Assembly (NCBI GenBank): GCA_947631665.1
Contig: CANRMF010000016.1
Coordinates: 1-43,668 of the forward strand
Direction of reading: 5' to 3'
DNA length: 43,668 nucleotides
DNA from: an uncultured Lachnospiraceae bacterium
GTDB lineage: Bacteria; Bacillota; Clostridia; Lachnospirales; Lachnospiraceae
Shown: piece by piece, positions 2,923-42,560 of the stretch
Position numbering within the stretch: position 1 is the first letter of the stretch
Layout of the letters: every line of letters begins with the position of its first letter
Notes under the pieces: generated by a model
The model's input: the letters and a program-made list of their open reading frames with translations, nothing else
What the model was told of the DNA's origin: nothing
Database searches by the model: none
Position numbers and translations under genes: made by a program

Positions 2923-3323
2923 CAGAGCACATTTTATCAAAACTGATACGCATTAACAGACAATGGAAAAAGGTATGCAGGAGTGCTCTTGCGCCGTATC
3001 AGTATATCGGAGTAATGCATCTGATTGTTATTTATGTCAACAGGTATCCGGGCTCGCGGCAGGAAGATGTTGCGGAATTTTATTCGCTTGACAAAGCGGG
3101 CGTCGCCAGAGATGCGCTTCGCCTTGAAAAAATGGGACATATCAGCAGACAGATTGATCCGGAGAGCAGGAGACAGTACAGCCTTTACCTGACAGAGCAG
3201 GGGAAAGAAATGGTCGGCGTTTTCAGGAAAATCTTTGTGGATTTTGAAAAAAGAATTTTGTCCACATTGTCTGAAAGCGAGAAAGAAACATTGCTGGGAC
3301 TGCTTGACAATGTAAATATTTAG
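2919..3323 (+). CDS. MarR family winged-helix transcriptional regulator
   Basis: A 134-residue protein of typical MarR length. The middle contains the winged helix-turn-helix: QEDVAEFYSLDKAGVARDALRLEKMG (about residues 51-76) as the helix-turn-helix and ISRQIDPESRRQYSLYLT as the beta-wing, followed by the dimerisation helix at the C-terminus. It overlaps the MATE gene by four bases and almost certainly controls it in response to a small ligand. Such proteins normally act as dimeric repressors at palindromes; candidate palindromes lie in the leader before the MATE gene. Confidence 0.9.
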   Translation: MTEHILSKLIRINRQWKKVCRSALAPYQYIGVMHLIVIYVNRYPGSRQEDVAEFYSLDKAGVARDALRLEKMGHISRQIDPESRRQYSLYLTEQGKEMVGVFRKIFVDFEKRILSTLSESEKETLLGLLDNVNI

Positions 3324-3408
3324 AAAAAATGGCCCACAGTGAAATTAGGGAAAGACACCGTTGTTTCAAATTTATCTCAAAATTTTTAATTTTGTGCTAC
3401 GCGAAGTA

Positions 3409-3442: not shown

Positions 3443-3632
3443 GCCGACTGGGGAAAAACATTTTTAAAATGAGAAATCTTTGTCGGTAATAAAAATTGCA
3501 TACGGTAATACAATCAAAGTTGCAAGAGTTTGAATAATTTAAAGGACATAAAAAGCCAGACATTGAATTGTTTAAACATGGCCAATCATGTCCCTGGGGG
3601 TTTTAATTACAAAACATCGAAGGGAGATAATG
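3443..3632 (+). other. Long structured 5' leader (possible cis-regulatory RNA)
   Basis: Three stem-loops can be drawn in order: GCCGAC 3443-3448 with GTCGGT 3482-3487; TTGCA 3496-3500 with TGCAA 3521-3525; and GGACAT 3544-3549 with ATGTCC 3588-3593, which encloses a second helix GCCA 3555-3558 with TGGC 3579-3582. It does not match a riboswitch consensus that I can recall, so no ligand is proposed. Confidence 0.35.
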
Positions 3633-5738
3633 ATGAAAAGGGAAAAGCAAAAGATTACGAAACAGGTAATTGCCATAACCATGGCAGCAGTATTGACATT
3701 GTGCATCGTTTCGGGCGTTGGAATAACCGTTCGGGCAGGATACGATGCGGCGTCAGAAACTTACACGTATTCAGCAGACGATCCGTTGTATGCGGCGACT
3801 CATTTTCACATCTTTGCACAGAATAATGTTTCTATTGATGTTCATACGCATGGAAACATTGCCTGCAATACTTTCAGTGGCAGGGCAGGATTTGGCAGCA
3901 GACAGGATTTTTATCCGAATAATGAAAGTACGGAAGTAAACTATATCCGCAAAATCAATCAATGGGAGCCGGCGTTAGTGATAGGGACATTGATTCTGGG
4001 AGCGGATTATGAAATTACCTCTCCGGAAAATTCAGGACAGACGATTGTAGTAGATAAAACAGTAAACACGCCGGTGGTATTAGGCGCGGTAAAAAGAGAC
4101 AGTGTTGTAATTGAAAAAGAAGGAAAGCATATCATAGATTTAGACAGTGAATTTGTAAAGCTGCGTGGGCGTTCCACAGAATGGTCTCAGATGCCTTCTT
4201 CTTCTGATGCAAAAATAGACCTTACAAGAGACCACAACTTACGGGCTATTGAACTTGATAATATCAATATGGATTCCGGCATAACTTTTGTGAATGTACC
4301 ATATGAAGAAATGACGGCGTCAACAAATAAAGTTTCTATTTGGGGAATTGATGGTAACACAAAACATACCGGAATTGTCGTATTCAATGTTGACTTAAAA
4401 GGTCAAACGAATGCGGAAATCGGTTTCCCAATGGAGGGCTGTACCCTTCGGGATAACAGCAGCGGAATCAGTATAGGAAATAAAGAAGTCGGCGCTGATT
4501 ATTATGGAGTCTGCCGGTTTATATGGAATTTTTATGACAGCAGCAAGGCGGATCGGATTTACGATGGCAAACTTTCATGGACGGGCGTGAAATATGGAAC
4601 AGTATTAGCGCCGGGAGCAGATGTGACCTTTGGCGCTGTAAATGGTACTGTGATTGCGAAAAATGCAATTCACACCGGAGATGAGTCTCACCGTTGGGAC
4701 GTTATCAGTGAAAAAGCAGGAAACAGCCGGAATATTCCGAGCGAGACTGCCACTTCAAAAGAAACTGAAACTTCAACAGAGACAGTCACTCCAACGGAAA
4801 CAGTTACGCCAGCAGAAACAGTTGCACCAACAGAAACGGTTGCACCGACAGAAACGGTAACGCCGACAGAAACCGTTGTACCGACGGAAACAGTAACACC
4901 AAAAGAAACCGTTGCACCGACGGAAGCAGTTACGCCAGCAGAAACGGTTGCGCCGAAAGAAACGGTCATGCCGAAAGAAACGGTCACGCCAAAAGAAACG
5001 GCTGCACCAACAGAAACAGTAACGCCGAAAGAAACGGTTGCACCGACAGAAACGGTCACGCCAAAAGAAACAGAGGCAAAAACAGAGGTTGTTACGAAGG
5101 AAGAAACGACAACATCAGCGAAAAACGCTGCACCGGAAGAAACCACGACACAGGTAGAGGGTGCTTCGCCGGAGAAGACCACAGCGCCGGTCGAAACCGT
5201 TACGCCGGTGGAAACAAACAAAGCGGAACAGACGACTTCTCCAAAAGAGACGAAGGAAAATAATAAAGAAAAGAAAAATAAGAAAAAAGGAAGTATTCGC
5301 ATTTCCATTCATGATAAATTGACTGGAAAAGGAATTCCAAAAGCAACGGTAGACATTGTAAACGAAGACGGGGAAGTTGTAAAAACCGTTGTCACAAACG
5401 AAAGCGGAAATATCTTTGTCGAGGATTTGGAAGAAGGTTCATACACTATAAAAGTAAAAAGTATTCCGGAGGGATACAAAAATCCGGGAACGCAGAGCGT
5501 TTCAGTGACAGGAGGAAAGACCGTCACAAAATATATGACAGTAAAGAAAGACCTGCAGTTAAGTTATGGAGGAGTAGAACAGACTGAAAAGATTGTTGCT
5601 GACAGAAACGGAAATCACAGTCTGACATCTCCGCAGACAGGAGATAATGAACCGTATATACCATTCCTTGCAGTTATGACCGTTTGTATTGCCGGCGGCG
5701 TTGGATTTTATTTTAAAGGAAAACGAACCGCAGAGTAA
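3633..5738 (+). CDS. Sortase-anchored surface protein: choice-of-anchor A-like domain, Thr/Pro/Glu repeat stalk, Cna-B domain
   Basis: A 701-residue exported protein. The start at 3633 follows GGGAG with 6-bp spacing; an ATG directly before it (3630) is too close. Residues 1 to about 33 form a signal peptide ending VRA. About 40-350 resembles the choice-of-anchor A domain, including the closing GTVLAPGADVTFG and AIHTGDESHRW motifs. Residues 382-481 are about 16 tandem six-residue units of the form PTETVT/PKETVA, a likely extended stalk. A Lys-rich linker leads into a Cna-B-type beta-sandwich at about 553-641. The C-terminus has the sortase-type signal SPQTGD (666-671), a membrane segment, and a KGKR tail. 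It probably links to peptidoglycan and projects its N-terminal domain outward. It stands alone between its own promoter and a terminator. Ligand unknown. Confidence 0.85.
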   Translation: MKREKQKITKQVIAITMAAVLTLCIVSGVGITVRAGYDAASETYTYSADDPLYAATHFHIFAQNNVSIDVHTHGNIACNTFSGRAGFGSRQDFYPNNESTEVNYIRKINQWEPALVIGTLILGADYEITSPENSGQTIVVDKTVNTPVVLGAVKRDSVVIEKEGKHIIDLDSEFVKLRGRSTEWSQMPSSSDAKIDLTRDHNLRAIELDNINMDSGITFVNVPYEEMTASTNKVSIWGIDGNTKHTGIVVFNVDLKGQTNAEIGFPMEGCTLRDNSSGISIGNKEVGADYYGVCRFIWNFYDSSKADRIYDGKLSWTGVKYGTVLAPGADVTFGAVNGTVIAKNAIHTGDESHRWDVISEKAGNSRNIPSETATSKETETSTETVTPTETVTPAETVAPTETVAPTETVTPTETVVPTETVTPKETVAPTEAVTPAETVAPKETVMPKETVTPKETAAPTETVTPKETVAPTETVTPKETEAKTEVVTKEETTTSAKNAAPEETTTQVEGASPEKTTAPVETVTPVETNKAEQTTSPKETKENNKEKKNKKKGSIRISIHDKLTGKGIPKATVDIVNEDGEVVKTVVTNESGNIFVEDLEEGSYTIKVKSIPEGYKNPGTQSVSVTGGKTVTKYMTVKKDLQLSYGGVEQTEKIVADRNGNHSLTSPQTGDNEPYIPFLAVMTVCIAGGVGFYFKGKRTAE
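4776..5075 (+). repeat. 18-bp coding tandem repeat (PTETVT/PKETVA stalk)
   Basis: About 16 to 17 in-frame units of 18 bp encode six-residue Thr/Pro/Glu repeats. Most variation is at third codon positions or swaps T for K or A, so selection seems to hold the protein pattern. Such repeats readily change copy number. Confidence 0.85.
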
Positions 5739-7044: not shown

Positions 7045-9105
7045 ATGAAAAAGTTAAGTGGAAAGTCTTTACTTGCGGTATTGTTGGCGTTGACGTTATG
7101 TGTTTCGATGAATGTGATGCCGGCAAGCGCTGCAAAAAAGAAAGCGAAAACAAAAGGAAAGGTGACAACTGTGGCTGTAAAGGCGCCAACCGGTTCCAAG
7201 AAGGTTGCGTATGTTGCCAAAGGAAAGAGCATTAAGCTCAAAGCCGTTGTAAAGGCTAAGCCGAACAAAAAAGCAAACAAAAAAGTGACTTATAAGTCAG
7301 CGAACAAAAAGATTGCGACTGTATCGGCAAAGGGTGTTGTTAAGGGAAAGAAACTTGGAAAAACAAAAATCACCATGACTTCCGTTAAGAACAAAAAGAA
7401 GAAAAAGACGATTACAATCAGAGTGACAAATCCGGTCAAACAAGTAAAACTGAACCAGAAAAAAGTACAGGTCGGGCCGGGCGAAACAATAAAGTTAAAG
7501 GCGACTGTTAAAGCGCCGAAGAAATCATTTAAAAAGGTTCAGTTTATATCTTCAAACAGAAAAGTTGCAACCGTAAATAAAAAGGGAGTGGTGAAAACCC
7601 GTTCTACAGGCACCGCTAAAATTACGGCAAAGGCATATGACGGAAGCGGTAAGAAGGCTGTCTGCACAGTGAAAGTTGCCAACGGTATTAAAAATATTAC
7701 TTTTGATAACCCGCTGAAGGCTTATTCCGTCAGCAAAGTTAAGGTTACCTTAAACAAGGCGCAAAAACTGAATCAGTCTGATTTTACAATTAAGACAAAA
7801 ATAAATCCTGATGGTTCCTACAACTTACAGGAAAAAGTTAAAAATATTTATACAAGTGATAATACAAATTATTATGTATTTCTGAAAGACAGCAGTTTTG
7901 CAGTCGGTGAATATGTTCAGGTGACGGTGAATGCGCTGAAGGGCAGAAAAACTTTTGAAAAGCAGTTTACTTCAGATGCCAGAGAGCAGGAGATGCTGAT
8001 TGAAGCTGACGTAAATGATGTTATTGATAATTACGTTTCCTTTAATGATAGCGGCTCGCGGGGATATCTGAGTTATAAAATTGAGTCAGGAAGCCTTCCG
8101 GCAGGTCTTACATATGATACAAAAGAGAACAGAATACAAGGAATTGTGCGTGCCGTTGCAAATAATCAGAAAGTGACGTTTGCCGCAACCGACGAATATG
8201 GAAAGACATTCCGGACGATTGTAAAATTTATGATTGGTGATAAAAACCATATTGTCGCTGAAAATAAAGTAATCGGCGATAAGGCATACAATAAGGTATA
8301 CCCGCACACCGACGCATCTGTAACTTTACATGTCAGCGGCGGAAGCGGCAGCTATATTGCGAAAATGCTTGATGACTGCGGAGAAATTTTCAGTGTATCA
8401 TCTAATCCGTCAGACAGTATATACATTGATTGCGACCCAAGCCGTTTAACCCGTCCGGGTACATACAATGTAAAAGTCAGCATTACAGATGAACAAAATC
8501 CTGCGCTTTTCGTAATGGCGGTTTATACGGTTGTAGTATCAAATGCGCAGCAGGTAAATATTACATTAAACAATTTTAAAGATACGACAGACAGGGCAAT
8601 CCGTTTTTACAGTTATGAGGAAGATGAGACATATTTCTTCTATCCTTACAGCGAGAACTATGATGCTCAGGTAAGAAATATAGGAACAATCAAGGAATAT
8701 GTACCGAATGGACATTACAAGATTTATTCTATGGCGTACGGAACGGAAATTGTATATGCTGATTACTATGCAGTCAATGGTACGGTAAATCTTACATATA
8801 CACTATCCGAATTGTTTACTATTTCCGGCGTCATTAAGGATAAGAATGGAAATCCATACCAAAACGGCTGCTATGTTTACATTTATAAAGCAGACGAGCC
8901 GTATGACGACATAGACTATGACTATGTAAGTTCAGGAGATTATGACGATTACGGTGGAAGCGGAAAATATAATTTTACCGGTATTCCAAATGGCAGTTAT
9001 ATTGTGGAGGCTGTGGACGAAGGCGAGAGAATTCGTTCCGGAGTTCTCACTGTAAATAACGGAAATGTTACTTGTGATCTGACATTGCCAATCGCAAATT
9101 ATTGA
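7045..9105 (+). CDS. Secreted lysine-rich protein with BIG2 Ig-like domains and a carboxypeptidase-regulatory-like C-terminus
   Basis: A 686-residue exported protein. AAGGAGG precedes the ATG by a normal distance. Residues 1-29 are a signal peptide ending ASA. Two bacterial Ig-like (BIG2) domains follow at about 40-125 and 128-205, with the usual S(A/S)N(K/R)K(I/V)ATV and G(V)VK motifs and an extreme Lys content. The middle (about 215-500) looks like further beta-sandwich or cadherin-like modules (for example GSLPAGLTYD, typical of putative-Ig repeats). The last 95 residues (ISGVIKDKNGNPY, FTGIPNGSYIVEAVDEG) resemble a carboxypeptidase regulatory-like fold. No LPxTG motif or C-terminal membrane segment is present, so attachment would be non-covalent, perhaps by charge. 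No enzyme domain is recognised. Confidence 0.8.
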   Translation: MKKLSGKSLLAVLLALTLCVSMNVMPASAAKKKAKTKGKVTTVAVKAPTGSKKVAYVAKGKSIKLKAVVKAKPNKKANKKVTYKSANKKIATVSAKGVVKGKKLGKTKITMTSVKNKKKKKTITIRVTNPVKQVKLNQKKVQVGPGETIKLKATVKAPKKSFKKVQFISSNRKVATVNKKGVVKTRSTGTAKITAKAYDGSGKKAVCTVKVANGIKNITFDNPLKAYSVSKVKVTLNKAQKLNQSDFTIKTKINPDGSYNLQEKVKNIYTSDNTNYYVFLKDSSFAVGEYVQVTVNALKGRKTFEKQFTSDAREQEMLIEADVNDVIDNYVSFNDSGSRGYLSYKIESGSLPAGLTYDTKENRIQGIVRAVANNQKVTFAATDEYGKTFRTIVKFMIGDKNHIVAENKVIGDKAYNKVYPHTDASVTLHVSGGSGSYIAKMLDDCGEIFSVSSNPSDSIYIDCDPSRLTRPGTYNVKVSITDEQNPALFVMAVYTVVVSNAQQVNITLNNFKDTTDRAIRFYSYEEDETYFFYPYSENYDAQVRNIGTIKEYVPNGHYKIYSMAYGTEIVYADYYAVNGTVNLTYTLSELFTISGVIKDKNGNPYQNGCYVYIYKADEPYDDIDYDYVSSGDYDDYGGSGKYNFTGIPNGSYIVEAVDEGERIRSGVLTVNNGNVTCDLTLPIANY

Positions 9106-9191
9106 TAGGGGAATACGGAACATATTGTTGCGGGAGAGATACCCTGTGATATTTCAAAATATGCGTTGAAATGACAGAGAATTTCCAATAA

Positions 9192-9243
9192 AAAATGAAA
9201 TTCCATGAAGCAGAGATTTATCTGTCTAATGGAATTTCATTTT
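9192..9243. terminator. Bidirectional terminator between convergent genes
   Basis: Perfect 15-bp arms at 9192-9206 and 9229-9243, with an A-run on one side and a T-run on the other. It serves the BIG2 protein gene on the plus strand and the XRE regulator on the minus strand. Confidence 0.9.
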
Positions 9244-9254
9244 ATTTTGGGATA

Positions 9255-9533
9255 TTATTTCTTTTTCCGAAAGGCGTCAGCAACCGCCCTGATTGCGCGG
9301 ATTTCATCTTCTGACAAATCGGAAAGATCCATAACGGGGCCTCTTTCCAACCCTAACAGATAGTCTGTCGTCACATGAAATAATCTTGCATATTTTACGA
9401 CAACATCAGGGGACGGGCATCGTTCATTCAGTTCATAAAAAGAGATTACGGATTTTGTTACGCCGAGTTGGTCGGCAACCTGCTGTTGTGTCATGCCAGC
9501 CTGTTTTCGCAAAGTTCTTAATTTAGAATCCAC
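9255..9533 (-). CDS. XRE/Cro-type helix-turn-helix regulator
   Basis: A 92-residue protein. Residues 5-60 form the HTH_3 domain, with TQQQVADQLGVTKSVISFYE as the helix-turn-helix and the usual closing DYLLGLE. The remaining 30 residues form a short acidic helix, LSEDEIRAIRAVADAFRKKK, likely for dimerisation. It is transcribed away from the HExxH-protein gene at 9811, with 277 bp between them. A small XRE repressor opposite a HExxH protein recalls ImmR/ImmA pairs of mobile elements, where the protease inactivates the repressor, but the metallo-protein here is not a clear ImmA. Confidence 0.88.
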   Translation of the reverse strand: MDSKLRTLRKQAGMTQQQVADQLGVTKSVISFYELNERCPSPDVVVKYARLFHVTTDYLLGLERGPVMDLSDLSEDEIRAIRAVADAFRKKK

Positions 9534-9810
9534 TAGTTATCACCTCATTTCTACAACAAGTGTACTAAAATAAAGAGTAGCAATGGTTTATATAAATATG
9601 AAATTAGTTGATAGACGCAAAGAATTCTTTTTTATTATGGCTTTTCACAACATTTATTATGTACAAAATAAAAAAAGGTGCAATCAGGAATGAATACATG
9701 AATGGAAAAAAGAGTTACGGATACGAAATAACAAGAGAAATAATCAACCTGAAAAGCAAAAAAACATACACCAAGTAGAGATCATAGGAAATATAAAGGT
9801 AGGTAGTAAT
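9534..9810. other. AT-rich divergent intergenic region
   Basis: This 277-bp stretch is clearly more AT-rich than the flanking housekeeping DNA. It must contain the promoters of the XRE gene (leftward) and the HExxH gene (rightward). No perfect -10/-35 pair or convincing palindromic operator could be picked out. A 26-codon reading frame at 9698-9778 has no strong ribosome site. Confidence 0.5.
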
Positions 9811-10341
9811 ATGAATATATGGAAATGTGATAGGTGGAAAGAGATTTATCAAGGACATGAAATTCGTAGTGGTTTAAGATTAAGATTTGATACTGGTGTT
9901 GATGAAGACGTAAAAAATGCGTTAAAAGATTTTGCTAAATACTTAAGAAAAGAGTATATTTTTCCAATTAGAGTGCCTATTTATGTCCGATATACAATGA
10001 AAATTATGGCAAGAGATGGTGATTTGGTAAATGGTACGTTTTTGGGCCCATACGATAAACTTGAAGAACCATATATCAGAATTGCAGTAGGAGATTATTG
10101 CCAAGAGAAATTGAAAAGAGGAAAGGGAGAGGCAGTAATATCATATTTTTATGTTATAGCACATGAATTAACACACTATTTTCAATGGCTTAATCAGATA
10201 GAAATAACGGAAATTGGAAAAGAAAGACAGGCTACAAGATGGGCAGATATAATTGTGAAAAATTATATCCATATAAAAAATAAAGAGAAGTATGTTACTC
10301 GTTGTGCATTAGTAAATCTGTTTCCGCATACGAAATGTTAA
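9811..10341 (+). CDS. HExxH zinc-metallopeptidase-like protein of unknown family
   Basis: A 176-residue protein with AHELTHYFQW, giving the zincin motif H118-E119-x-x-H122. The third ligand is uncertain; E139 or nearby residues in the ERQATRWAD stretch could supply it, as in proteins with H-E-x-x-H followed by a downstream acidic residue. The N-terminal half contains a GLRLRFDTGVDEDVKNALKDFAKYLRK helix-rich segment and a beta-hairpin region. No signal peptide is present, so it should be cytoplasmic. DNA here is notably AT-rich. It ends inside the start region of a second frame at 10335 that looks like HEAT repeats; the pair may be one interrupted gene. Function not known; roles in repressor cleavage or regulation are only suggested by the opposing XRE gene. 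Confidence 0.65.
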   Translation: MNIWKCDRWKEIYQGHEIRSGLRLRFDTGVDEDVKNALKDFAKYLRKEYIFPIRVPIYVRYTMKIMARDGDLVNGTFLGPYDKLEEPYIRIAVGDYCQEKLKRGKGEAVISYFYVIAHELTHYFQWLNQIEITEIGKERQATRWADIIVKNYIHIKNKEKYVTRCALVNLFPHTKC

Positions 10342-12171: not shown

Positions 12172-12285
12172 TTTCATAATCCTTTCTGCAACAATATATT
12201 TTTGTACTGCGCCTATTGTCTTCCGGCAGCACAACGATAAAGACATTTTACAATATTTTTCACTTTAAAGCAATAAAGTTTTCGA

Positions 12286-12388
12286 CGATATAGACATAGA
12301 TTTTGACGATATAGACGTAGATTTTCGCCAGCGCGATGTGGATTTTGCAGATGTAGATGTGTGTTTCCGCCAGCGGCGATGTGGATTT
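12286..12388. repeat. Five degenerate tandem repeats of about 21 bp next to the first 74-bp array
   Basis: Units start at 12286, 12307, 12328, 12349 and 12368. The first two differ by one base (GACGATATAGACATAGATTTT type); the others keep GAT-GT-GATTT positions. The last unit runs straight into the first palindromic box of the 74-bp array. On the opposite strand the unit (ATATCGTCAAAATC...) partly resembles the 22-bp repeat near cysD. Confidence 0.7.
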
Positions 12389-12649
12389 ACATGTAAAATA
12401 CTTCAATTTGCAGGAATTGACATGTAATTCACTCCCGTTTCTCATAATTTTCAAACTTTTTTACATGTAAAAGTCTTGAATTTGCGGGAAATGACATGTA
12501 ATTTGTTCCCGTTTCTCATACTTTTCAAACTTTTTTACATGTAAAAGTCTTGAATTTGCGGGAAATGACATGTAATTTGTTCCCGTCTCCCATAATTTTC
12601 AAACTTTTTTACATGCAAAAGTCTTCAATTTGTGGGAAATGACATGTAA
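12387..12649. repeat. 74-bp repeat array 1: four 41-bp boxes with 33-bp spacers
   Basis: Boxes lie at 12387-12427, 12461-12501, 12535-12575 and 12609-12649, each exactly 74 bp from the next. Every box starts with TTACATGT/CAA and ends with GACATGTAA, and has an internal TTTGCRGG or similar core. Spacers are also conserved (TTCCCGTTTCTCAT and TTTTCAAAC blocks). It sits between the histidine kinase stop and the paaK start. It carries no credible gene. Confidence 0.95.
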
Positions 12650-28404: not shown

Positions 28405-28815
28405 TTACATGCAAATCCCTGCGAAAAGATGGATTTGACATGTAATTTGATTTGAAATTTGTGGAAAGCAAGCGTATTTTACATGCAAATCCCTGCAAAA
28501 AGATGAATTTGACATGTAATTTGATTTGAAATTTGTGGAAAGCAAGCGTATTTTACATGCAAATTCCTGCGAAAAGATGGATTTGGCATGTAATTTGATT
28601 TGAAATTTGTGAAAGGCAGGCGTATTTTACATGCAAATTCCTGTGAAAAGGTGGATTTGGCATGTAATTTGATTTGAAATTTGCGAAAGGCAGGCGCATT
28701 TTACATGCAAATTCCTGCAAAAAGGTGGATTTGACATGTAATTTGATTTGAAATTTGCGAAAGGCAAGCATATTTTACATGCAAATCCCTGCAAAAAGGT
28801 GGATTTGGCATGTAA
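28405..28815. repeat. 74-bp repeat array 2: six 41-bp boxes with 33-bp spacers
   Basis: Boxes begin at 28405, 28479, 28553, 28627, 28701 and 28775, every 74 bp without exception, each 41 bp long. The box arms TTACATGCAAATCC and GGATTTG-(A/G)-CATGTAA form a 14-bp stem with one bulged base and a loop such as CTGCGAAAAGAT. The spacers (TTTGATTTGAAATTTG...) are nearly identical. The whole array reads as the reverse complement of array 3. It lies between two convergent genes. Confidence 0.97.
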
Positions 28816-41622: not shown

Positions 41623-42327
41623 TTACATGTAAATTTCTATTTTGGCAGAGATTTACATGTAAAAAAGTGCTGATTTTTTTGAGGTTCGGATTTGATTACA
41701 TGTCAAATCCATCTTTTAGCAGGGATTTGCATGTAAAATACGTTTGCTTTTTGCAAAATTCAAATCAAATTACATGCCAAATCTACCCTTTTGCAAGAAT
41801 TTGCATGTAAAATATGTCCGCTTTCCGCAAAATTCAAATCAAATTACATGCAAAATCCATCTTTTTGAAGGGATTTGCATGTAAAATGTTCCAACTTTCC
41901 GCAAAGTTCAAATCAAATTACATGTCAAATCCACCCTTTTGCAGGAATTTGCATGTAAAATATTCCAACTTTCCGCAAAATTCAAATCAAATTACATGCA
42001 AAATCCACCCTTTCGCAGGGATTTGCATGTAAAATATTCCAACTTTCCGCAAAGTTCAAATCAAATTACATGCAAAATCCACCTTTTTGCAGGGATTTGC
42101 ATGTAAAATATGCCCGCTTTCCGCAAAATTCAAATCAAATTACATGTCAAATCCACCTTTTAGCAGAAATTTGCATGTAAAATACGCTTGCCTTCCGCAA
42201 AGTTCAAATCAAATTACATGTCAAATCCACCCTTTCGCAAGAAATTGCATGTAAAATGTTCCAGCTTTTCAAAAAGTTCAAATCAAATTACATGCAAAAT
42301 CCACCTTTTGCAAGAATTTGCATGTAA
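41623..42327. repeat. 74-bp repeat array 3: ten 41-bp boxes with 33-bp spacers
   Basis: Box starts are 41623, 41696, 41770, 41844, 41918, 41992, 42066, 42140, 42214 and 42288. Spacing is 74 bp throughout except 73 bp after the first box, which lacks one base; the last box also is 40 bp. Boxes pair as TTACATG(T/C)-(C)AAATCC with GG(A/G)ATTTGCATGTAA. Spacers are conserved (TTCC, CCGCAAA and TTCAAATCAAA blocks). It fills most of the 1.3-kb gap before cysD. Confidence 0.97.
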
Positions 42328-42406
42328 AATAGTTCTGGTTTCTAAAAGTCTTTTCATTCAGCAGCCCCATCTTTTCTTGCAGCAGGGCAGAAAAGCAAAA
42401 TTTTGC

Positions 42407-42560
42407 CAGATAATCCATCAAAAAGAGCCGCATAATCCATCAAAAAGAGTCAGATAATCCATCAAAAAGAGTCAGATAATTCATCAAAAAGAGCCAGATA
42501 TTCCATCAAAAAGAGTCAGATATTCCATCAAAAACAGCCGTATATTCTATCAAAAAAACT
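42407..42560. repeat. Seven 22-bp tandem repeats (iteron-like) upstream of cysD
   Basis: Units CAGATAATCCATCAAAAAGAGT and close variants start at 42407, 42429, 42451, 42473, 42495, 42517 and 42539, exactly 22 bp apart. Later copies change AATCC to ATTCC. The end of the last unit forms a small hairpin CTATCAA/TTGATAG (42547-42566). They finish about 119 bp before cysD. Confidence 0.95.

What the first reader, a model, noticed from the sequence alone, without database searches (positions are those of the whole stretch)
41623..42327. Ten-copy array of 41-bp hairpin boxes with a near-invariant 74-bp pitch
Read directly: ten boxes, starts 74 bp apart (one step 73, where a box lacks its bulge base). 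The boxes have paired arms TTACATG...CAAATCC / GGATTTGCATGTAA around a loop that varies (CACCTTTTTGCA, CATCTTTTAGCA and so on), with compensating closeness in the arms. Spacers of 33 bp are also conserved, so this is neither CRISPR nor a simple satellite. Length is kept more strictly than sequence, which points to a structural constraint such as phased protein binding or a repeated RNA fold. I do not recognise a named repeat family.
Basis: seen in the sequence. Interest (0 to 1): 0.88.

Follow-up and report, generated by a model that had tools for sequence, protein, structure and literature searches.

The report
Helically phased arrays of paired DNA words
A gut bacterium's chromosome carries about sixteen scattered repeat arrays that share only a short paired DNA word and an exact spacing of seven DNA turns, which looks like a landing platform for an unidentified DNA-bending protein; some related species have similar arrays built on other words and spacings.

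Summary
The ten-box array is real and not alone. The window holds two more arrays (12387-12649, 28405-28815); the genome holds 16, and its 88 exact boxes all lie in array context. Between arrays the interior and spacer sequences differ widely, but the end words (TTACATGY...RCATGTAA), box length (40-42, mostly 41), spacer (33 or 34) and pitch (73-75) hold. A/T- and G/C-rich stretches alternate with a 10.57-bp period, seven turns per unit, in phase across arrays (0 of 5000 rotations). Box interiors pair no better than halves of unrelated arrays, so a conserved hairpin or RNA fold is not supported. A congener has arrays of the same plan with another word (TACCCC...GGGGTA) at pitch 94 (nine turns), three others have 64-65, and a second genus has TTACATA arrays at pitch 74-75. 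Best reading: binding platforms for an unidentified sequence-specific DNA-bending protein, with units exchanged between loci. Main rival: a REPIN-like mobile family; RAYT transposase was not found in this genome and solo boxes are absent here, but arrays do copy between loci and some array-bearing relatives have Y1 transposases. Role unknown.

The parts
41623..42327 (.). Array 3 (the finding): ten boxes of 40-41 bp, nine 33-bp spacers, pitch 73-74
28405..28815 (.). Array 2: six 41-bp boxes, five 33-bp spacers, same sequence family as array 3 in inverted orientation, between convergent genes
12387..12649 (.). Array 1: four 41-bp boxes, three 33-bp spacers, different interior and spacer sequence, same end words and pitch
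42066..42106 (.). One typical box: word TTACATG, 27-bp interior, word CATGTAA
   Evidence: fold
42107..42139 (.). One typical 33-bp spacer, A/T at both ends
42138..42220 (.). 83-bp stretch (one whole unit plus the next word) identical to a stretch of another array of the same genome (L070, contig C13)

Best explanation
The arrays are dispersed, multivalent binding platforms for a sequence-specific architectural protein. Shown: fixed words TTACATGY/RCATGTAA at both ends of each box; box length and pitch fixed to within about 1 bp while interior and spacer differ between arrays; helical phasing of A/T and G/C over the unit; in this genome, occurrence only in tandem arrays; the same plan in several species and in a second genus. 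Inferred: a dimeric protein binds each word (TTACATGTAA is itself a 10-bp palindrome, so dyads would lie 31 and 43 bp apart in turn, close to 3 and 4 turns, on one face of the DNA), and the DNA between words is bent toward it, so that an array forms a regular wrapped or coiled nucleoprotein patch. Arrays lengthen and shorten by tandem duplication and exchange units between loci. The chromosome-level role (nucleoid folding, anchoring or segregation, insulation) is a guess, and the protein is not identified.
For: Lengths: in 15 arrays of this genome all 81 steps are 73-75 and all spacers 33 or 34 (the 16th array, C57, came later). All 88 exact boxes are in arrays, the C5 box among degenerate neighbours (with 14, 69). 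Phasing: GC power at 10.57 bp 0.735, no more than 0.08 at the periods tried outside 10-11.5 bp, 0 of 5000 rotations (8 sequence clusters, words masked); seven per 74 bp is the strongest harmonic in 19 of 27 arrays, and 22 of 27 pass p<0.05 against column permutations that keep words and tandem period. The different word system of G019 peaks at 10.44 bp, 0 of 3000 rotations (13 arrays, 38 units; no column permutation was run there). Units of G013, G189 and G012 against a template made without them: mean correlation 0.28 at zero shift, negative at half a turn. Pitches 74, 94, 64-65 are near 7, 9, 6 turns. At five orthologous loci words are 94-100% identical and interiors 66-81% (units were picked with at most one mismatch per word, so word identity is partly built in). 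No dyad pairing of interiors beyond chance.
Against: No protein, footprint or phenotype. A wedge model of static curvature (angles recalled) puts 20 of 28 TTACATG arrays beyond all 200 shuffles, and 5 of 10 G019 arrays, but those shuffles destroy the tandem period and so are lenient, and the finding's own array is not above them (114 of 200 reach it); L066, L070, L073, L075, L081, L082 are not clearly above either. So phasing is not simply intrinsic curvature. Five of 27 arrays fail the phasing test, and in 4 of 6 independent loci some other shift scores slightly higher than zero shift. Arrays copy between loci, sit in a 1.13-kb inverted-repeat element in G013, and an array end plus adjacent noncoding DNA (291 bp, 94%) is shared by G011 and G022. 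G019 also has single TACCCC boxes. Most species of the genus show no array with these words, and at the array 2 locus 18 of 21 genomes show no such tandem array (three of these loci are cut by contig ends). Unrelated arrays share 0.366 base identity against 0.268 when shifted, so remote common descent may carry part of the phase signal.
Confidence: 0.48

Rival explanations
1. A REPIN- or MITE-like selfish family: the inverted words are ends recognised by a transposase acting in trans, arrays are tandem copies, and the fixed length and phasing reflect the geometry of the transposition complex.
For: Same family at three loci of this genome, with an 83-bp identical stretch between two of them; same family at different loci and different families at one locus in G000 and G011; G013 arrays lie in a 1.13-kb element with inverted ends present at two loci; a shared array end plus noncoding DNA in G011 and G022; Y1 transposase genes occur in some array-bearing relatives (two each in G013 and G004, a broken one in G022, a sub-threshold one in G006); REPINs of P. 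fluorescens are also inverted word pairs with preferred distances and tandem clusters (passages of PMC3116915).
Against: Y1 transposase/RAYT (PF01797) is not found in G000, G011 (84% complete), G019 or G009; none of 88 exact boxes of G000 is isolated, whereas most REPINs are singlets; flanks of 14 G000 arrays share no sequence beyond the words, and I saw no target duplication by eye; none of the 29 G000/G011 neighbour proteins scanned is a transposase above cut-off (one has a sub-threshold transposase zinc-ribbon match).
Confidence: 0.29
2. Ordinary tandem satellites that arose once, spread, and drift; the shared words and pitch are leftovers of common ancestry and the phasing is a by-product of AT-rich DNA.
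For: Homogeneity within arrays, composite arrays and exchange between loci show tandem-repeat dynamics; residual identity between unrelated arrays.
Against: Interiors diverge at orthologous loci while words and lengths hold (with the selection caveat on words); a different word system with another pitch follows the helical rule; column-permutation control.
Confidence: 0.13
3. RNA or single-stranded hairpins: transcribed repeats or cruciforms whose stem is the functional unit.
For: Boxes fold better than shuffles: of 10 folds, 7 at z -2.9 or lower, up to 14-bp stems in the window family.
Against: Interior pairing over 27 arrays 0.394 against null 0.414; a hairpin does not need a fixed loop or spacer length; no bias of array orientation toward genes; no Rfam match.
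Confidence: 0.04
4. A centromere-like system, such as the RacA-binding clusters of Bacillus subtilis (recalled; here only a title in a reference list was seen). This is a special case of the platform reading.
For: In the one complete relative, G019, 10 of 13 arrays lie within 575 kb of the skew-inferred origin.
Against: Not significant once three neighbouring arrays count as one (11 loci, one-sided p 0.11; 13 arrays p 0.02); tested after seeing the map; contig order of G000 unknown.
Confidence: 0.1

Closest known systems
REPINs / BIMEs with RAYT transposases (passages of PMC3116915)
   Same: Inverted word pairs bounding a less conserved interior, intergenic, many loci, tandem clusters, preferred distances (71 and 110 bp in P. 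fluorescens)
   Different: No RAYT found in the array-rich genomes, no pairing beyond the end words, no solo copies in G000, pitch fixed to about 1 bp across dissimilar sequences and near whole helical turns
RacA/ram clusters and other centromere-like site clusters (from recall)
   Same: Clusters of inverted sites scattered over a large chromosomal region
   Different: Origin proximity not established; factor unknown; strict tandem pitch
Phased A-tract DNA in prokaryotes (PMC3940949, outline and abstract read)
   Same: A/T runs repeated with the helical period, proposed to aid nucleoid compaction
   Different: Here phase is locked to a fixed word in discrete arrays of fixed pitch, not a diffuse genome-wide signal
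Plasmid iterons and parS/parC centromeres (from recall)
   Same: Regular, helically spaced protein sites
   Different: About 16 dispersed chromosomal arrays rather than one locus; no Rep or Par family among the 33 neighbour proteins scanned

Membership tests
REPIN/RAYT | Y1 (RAYT) transposase in the genome | tested here: not met
   PF01797 not found in G000, G011, G019, G009; found in 6 of 23 genus genomes at E<=0.001, 5 over cut-off, among them G013, G004 and (broken) G022, which bear arrays or remnants. Not met for the window's genome, open for those
REPIN/RAYT | REP hairpin within each word (recalled) and mostly single copies | tested here: not met
   No pairing of interiors beyond chance; none of 88 exact boxes of G000 isolated
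MITE | Terminal inverted repeats with target-site duplication | tested here: inconclusive
   Words are inverted ends, but flanks of 14 G000 arrays share nothing and no duplication was seen by eye; the G013 carrier element has inverted ends (20 bp at 90% in one copy, 14 bp in the other)
CRISPR | Constant repeat with unique spacers | tested here: not met
   Spacers are alike within an array, boxes differ between arrays
Integron attC array | RYYYAAC/GTTRRRY core boxes (recalled) | tested here: not met
   Words are TTACATGY/RCATGTAA; no integrase search was made
Centromere-like site clusters (RacA type) | Clusters concentrated round the origin | tested here: inconclusive
   G019: 13 arrays p 0.02, 11 independent loci p 0.11
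Centromere-like site clusters (RacA type) | Presence of the cognate anchoring protein | not tested
   No search for RacA was made
Known RNA family | Rfam model match | tested here: not met
   0 matches at gathering threshold in the window

The most novel reading that the evidence does not exclude
Lachnospiraceae species carry a fast-changing chromosome-organising system: a word-specific DNA-wrapping protein and dispersed arrays whose pitch is quantised in whole helical turns (7 turns at 74 bp, 9 at 94, 6 at 64-65). Word and pitch switch between species together with the protein, so that arrays and protein coevolve as satellite DNA and centromere proteins do in eukaryotes.
Probability: 0.27. 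Interest if true: 0.88.

Novelty: new variant of a known kind. Interest (0 to 1): 0.72.

Why it matters
If the reading holds, sequence alone gives the repeat length, the face of the helix and the recognition word of an unknown bacterial chromatin-like assembly, and offers species in which word and pitch differ, so the cognate protein could be found by pull-down and by comparing gene content. Even under the mobile-element reading it would be a dispersed family whose units are held in length to about one base pair.

Tried and rejected
Hairpin/RNA reading: not supported by the dyad-pairing control. CRISPR: excluded by layout. RAYT/REPIN: transposase not found in G000, G011, G019, G009, but present in other array-bearing relatives, so weakened rather than excluded. 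Phage or plasmid origin: no match to array 3 in the phage and plasmid collections and no TTACATG two-box match in viral contigs. Linked gene: 29 proteins beside G000/G011 arrays and 4 beside G189 arrays were scanned with Pfam; most are core enzymes, four have no family, none recurs apart from shared loci and a Dus-type gene beside one G000 and one G189 array (39% identity); no trans factor found. Conserved positions across word systems: the genes beside array 2 lie beside two G019 arrays and an aminotransferase neighbour recurs, but by a rough estimate, made in no call, chance overlap would be about one gene, so only suggestive. Word avoidance outside arrays: none in the fetched G000 loci (TTACATG 18 seen, 22 expected). 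Tandem-repeat periods of whole turns in general: seen in fetched G000 loci (11 of 21) but not in G011 (0 of 9) or others, so dropped. A family-wide TACCCC search used spacers up to 57 bp and so could not see the 58-bp spacers of G019; it says nothing about the 94-bp type elsewhere. Three single two-box matches in Campylobacteraceae and Thiotrichales contigs were taken as chance without study. The de novo scan also returned a few other runs (L159, L143, L155, L074, L077, L178), not pursued; its block-shuffled control gave none. Literature: full-text searches listed no description of this family; the library lacks most subscription papers, so this absence is weak.

Full report
Observation. The array exists as described: ten boxes bounded by TTACATG and CATGTAA between 41623 and 42327, with one step of 73 and eight of 74, and nine spacers of exactly 33 bp. 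The pattern has no matches in 100 shuffles of the window. The window contains two more arrays, at 12387-12649 and 28405-28815.

Whole genome. Split by the base next to each word they number 31, 19 and 38, which adds to 88, and those lists are whole. They form 16 arrays; 15 were examined in detail, and the sixteenth (C57, three boxes at 74-bp pitch) was found last. The single exact box on C5 has degenerate neighbours at the right distances, so I count none as isolated. Over the 15 arrays, with up to one mismatch per word and box lengths 37-45 allowed, 86 of 96 boxes are 41 bp, nine are 40 and one is 42; all 81 steps are 73-75 and all spacers 33 or 34. In G011, 13 arrays give 88 boxes and 75 steps, 71 of them 73-75; the other four (31, 43, 43, 62) look like chance overlapping matches.

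Sequence between the words. Units are alike within an array, but arrays fall into sequence clusters (8 among 27 arrays at the threshold used) that share little apart from the words. At five loci shared by G000 and G011, words are 94-100% identical while interiors are 66-81% and spacers 55-83%; units were chosen with at most one mismatch per word, so word identity is partly built in. At a sixth shared locus the two species carry different families. Exact stretches of 83 bp (G000) and 77 bp (G011) are shared by arrays at different loci of one genome, so units are exchanged or copied.

Helical phasing. Averaged over array families (27 for boxes, 24 for spacers), GC content along the 74-bp unit swings regularly, with A/T minima near 11, 21, 31, 42, 53, 63 and 74. 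On 8 clusters, words masked, power peaks at 10.57 bp (0.735; no more than 0.08 at the periods tried outside 10-11.5), and none of 5000 rotations reaches it. With a permutation that keeps words, composition and tandem period, 22 of 27 arrays pass p<0.05, and seven per unit is the strongest harmonic in 19 of 27; five arrays do not pass. Six loci of G013, G189 and G012 follow the same phase weakly: mean correlation 0.28 at zero shift and negative at half a turn, though in four of the six another shift scores slightly higher. A static wedge model, with angles recalled, puts 20 of 28 TTACATG arrays and 5 of 10 G019 arrays beyond all 200 shuffles, but not the finding's own array (114 of 200 reach it), and its shuffles do not keep the tandem period (two of the stretches, L077 and L080, included flanking DNA). 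Bendability or phased contacts therefore fit better than fixed curvature.

Not a conserved hairpin. Boxes fold better than shuffles (7 of 10 folds at z -2.9 or lower), as inverted words must, but over 27 arrays interior pairing is 0.394, against 0.414 when the right half comes from another cluster. Spacer dyad pairing is 0.256 (same call, no control). By a simple ORF caller, 30 arrays (28 of G000/G011, one of G012, one of G019) lie between genes of every orientation: 14 co-directional, 6 convergent, 4 divergent, 6 with one neighbour missing. Rfam has no match in the window.

Other species. The two-box TTACATG pattern occurs in 4 of 40 genomes of the relatives set, counting G000: G000, G011, G012 and G022, all one genus. 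A de novo scan of sampled stretches found a TTACATA version in G013. Of 392 genomes of the order, 3 have TTACATR arrays: G000, G013 and G189, the last in another genus, with box 40 and pitch 74-75; that draw did not include G011 or G012. G019, a complete 2.86-Mb genome, has no TTACATR array but 50 boxes of the form TACCCC...GGGGTA, none in its reversed-pattern control. They make 13 arrays with box 36 and pitch 94, with single steps of 93 and 95, plus a few lone boxes; the units are phased at 10.44 bp (0 of 3000). G009, G004 and G006 have TACCCC boxes at pitch 64-65. The other TACCCC matches (9 of 23 genomes have any) are about as many as in the control and taken as chance. At the array 2 locus, 21 of 23 genus genomes have the flanking PRPP synthetase gene; only G000 and G011 show the 74-bp array and G019 a 94-bp one.

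What it is likely to be. TTACATGTAA is a 10-bp palindrome, and the consensus after TTACATG is Y, A/C, A. If a dimer sits on each word, dyads are 31 and 43 bp apart in turn, close to 3 and 4 turns, so sites face the same way; this is inference. The simplest account is an architectural protein that binds words in series and bends the DNA between them. The rival, a mobile family with word ends, has real support: copying between loci, the G013 element of 1.13 kb with inverted ends at two loci, a 291-bp stretch of array end plus noncoding DNA at 94% in G011 and G022 where no flanking proteins matched (the G011 contig ends beside the array), and Y1 transposases in G013 and G004. It is weakened by the missing RAYT in G000, G011, G019 and G009, the lack of solo boxes in G000, and flanks of 14 arrays without common sequence. 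Origin proximity in G019 is suggestive only (p 0.11 for 11 loci).

Known systems. REPINs (PMC3116915, passages read) are the nearest published design, with preferred distances of 71 and 110 bp and tandem clusters; in the window's genome this family fails the RAYT, hairpin and singlet tests. Phased A-tracts in prokaryotes are known in general (PMC3940949, outline and abstract). Searches listed no account of such arrays. I rate it a new variant of a known kind: dispersed arrays of protein sites or word-bounded repeats are known, while the word-locked pitch near whole turns and its change between species are new to me.

Noticed in passing
window 42405-42556: A second, unrelated tandem array (22-bp unit, about seven copies, with an A5 run in most units) lies just downstream of array 3.
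   Followed up: partly
window 12280-12388: A 21/42-bp tandem repeat abuts array 1; intergenic repeats in fetched G000 loci have periods near whole helical turns in 11 of 21 cases, but 0 of 9 in G011.
   Followed up: partly
L180 about 9156-10282 and L182 about 8692-9818 (G013): A 1.13-kb noncoding element (91% identical) with inverted ends and large internal inverted repeats occurs at two loci and carries the same three-box TTACATA array.
   Followed up: partly
L080 184-474 and L119 about 3093-3383 (G011, G022): An array end and the noncoding DNA beside it are shared at 94% over 291 bp although no encoded proteins of the two loci matched.
   Followed up: partly
L113 and L148 (G019, 309 and 428 kb): The two genes that flank array 2 in the window (PRPP synthetase, AAA protein) are about 119 kb apart in G019 and each has a TACCCC array at its 3' end, as if a rearrangement had gone through an array.
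   Followed up: partly
G019 spacers, L143-L156: The 58-bp spacers share a loose central motif like GCAACATA.TGTAT, a possible second site in that system.
   Followed up: no
window 4752-5108: Coding tandem repeats of 18 bp and multiples inside ORF 3588-5738.
   Followed up: no
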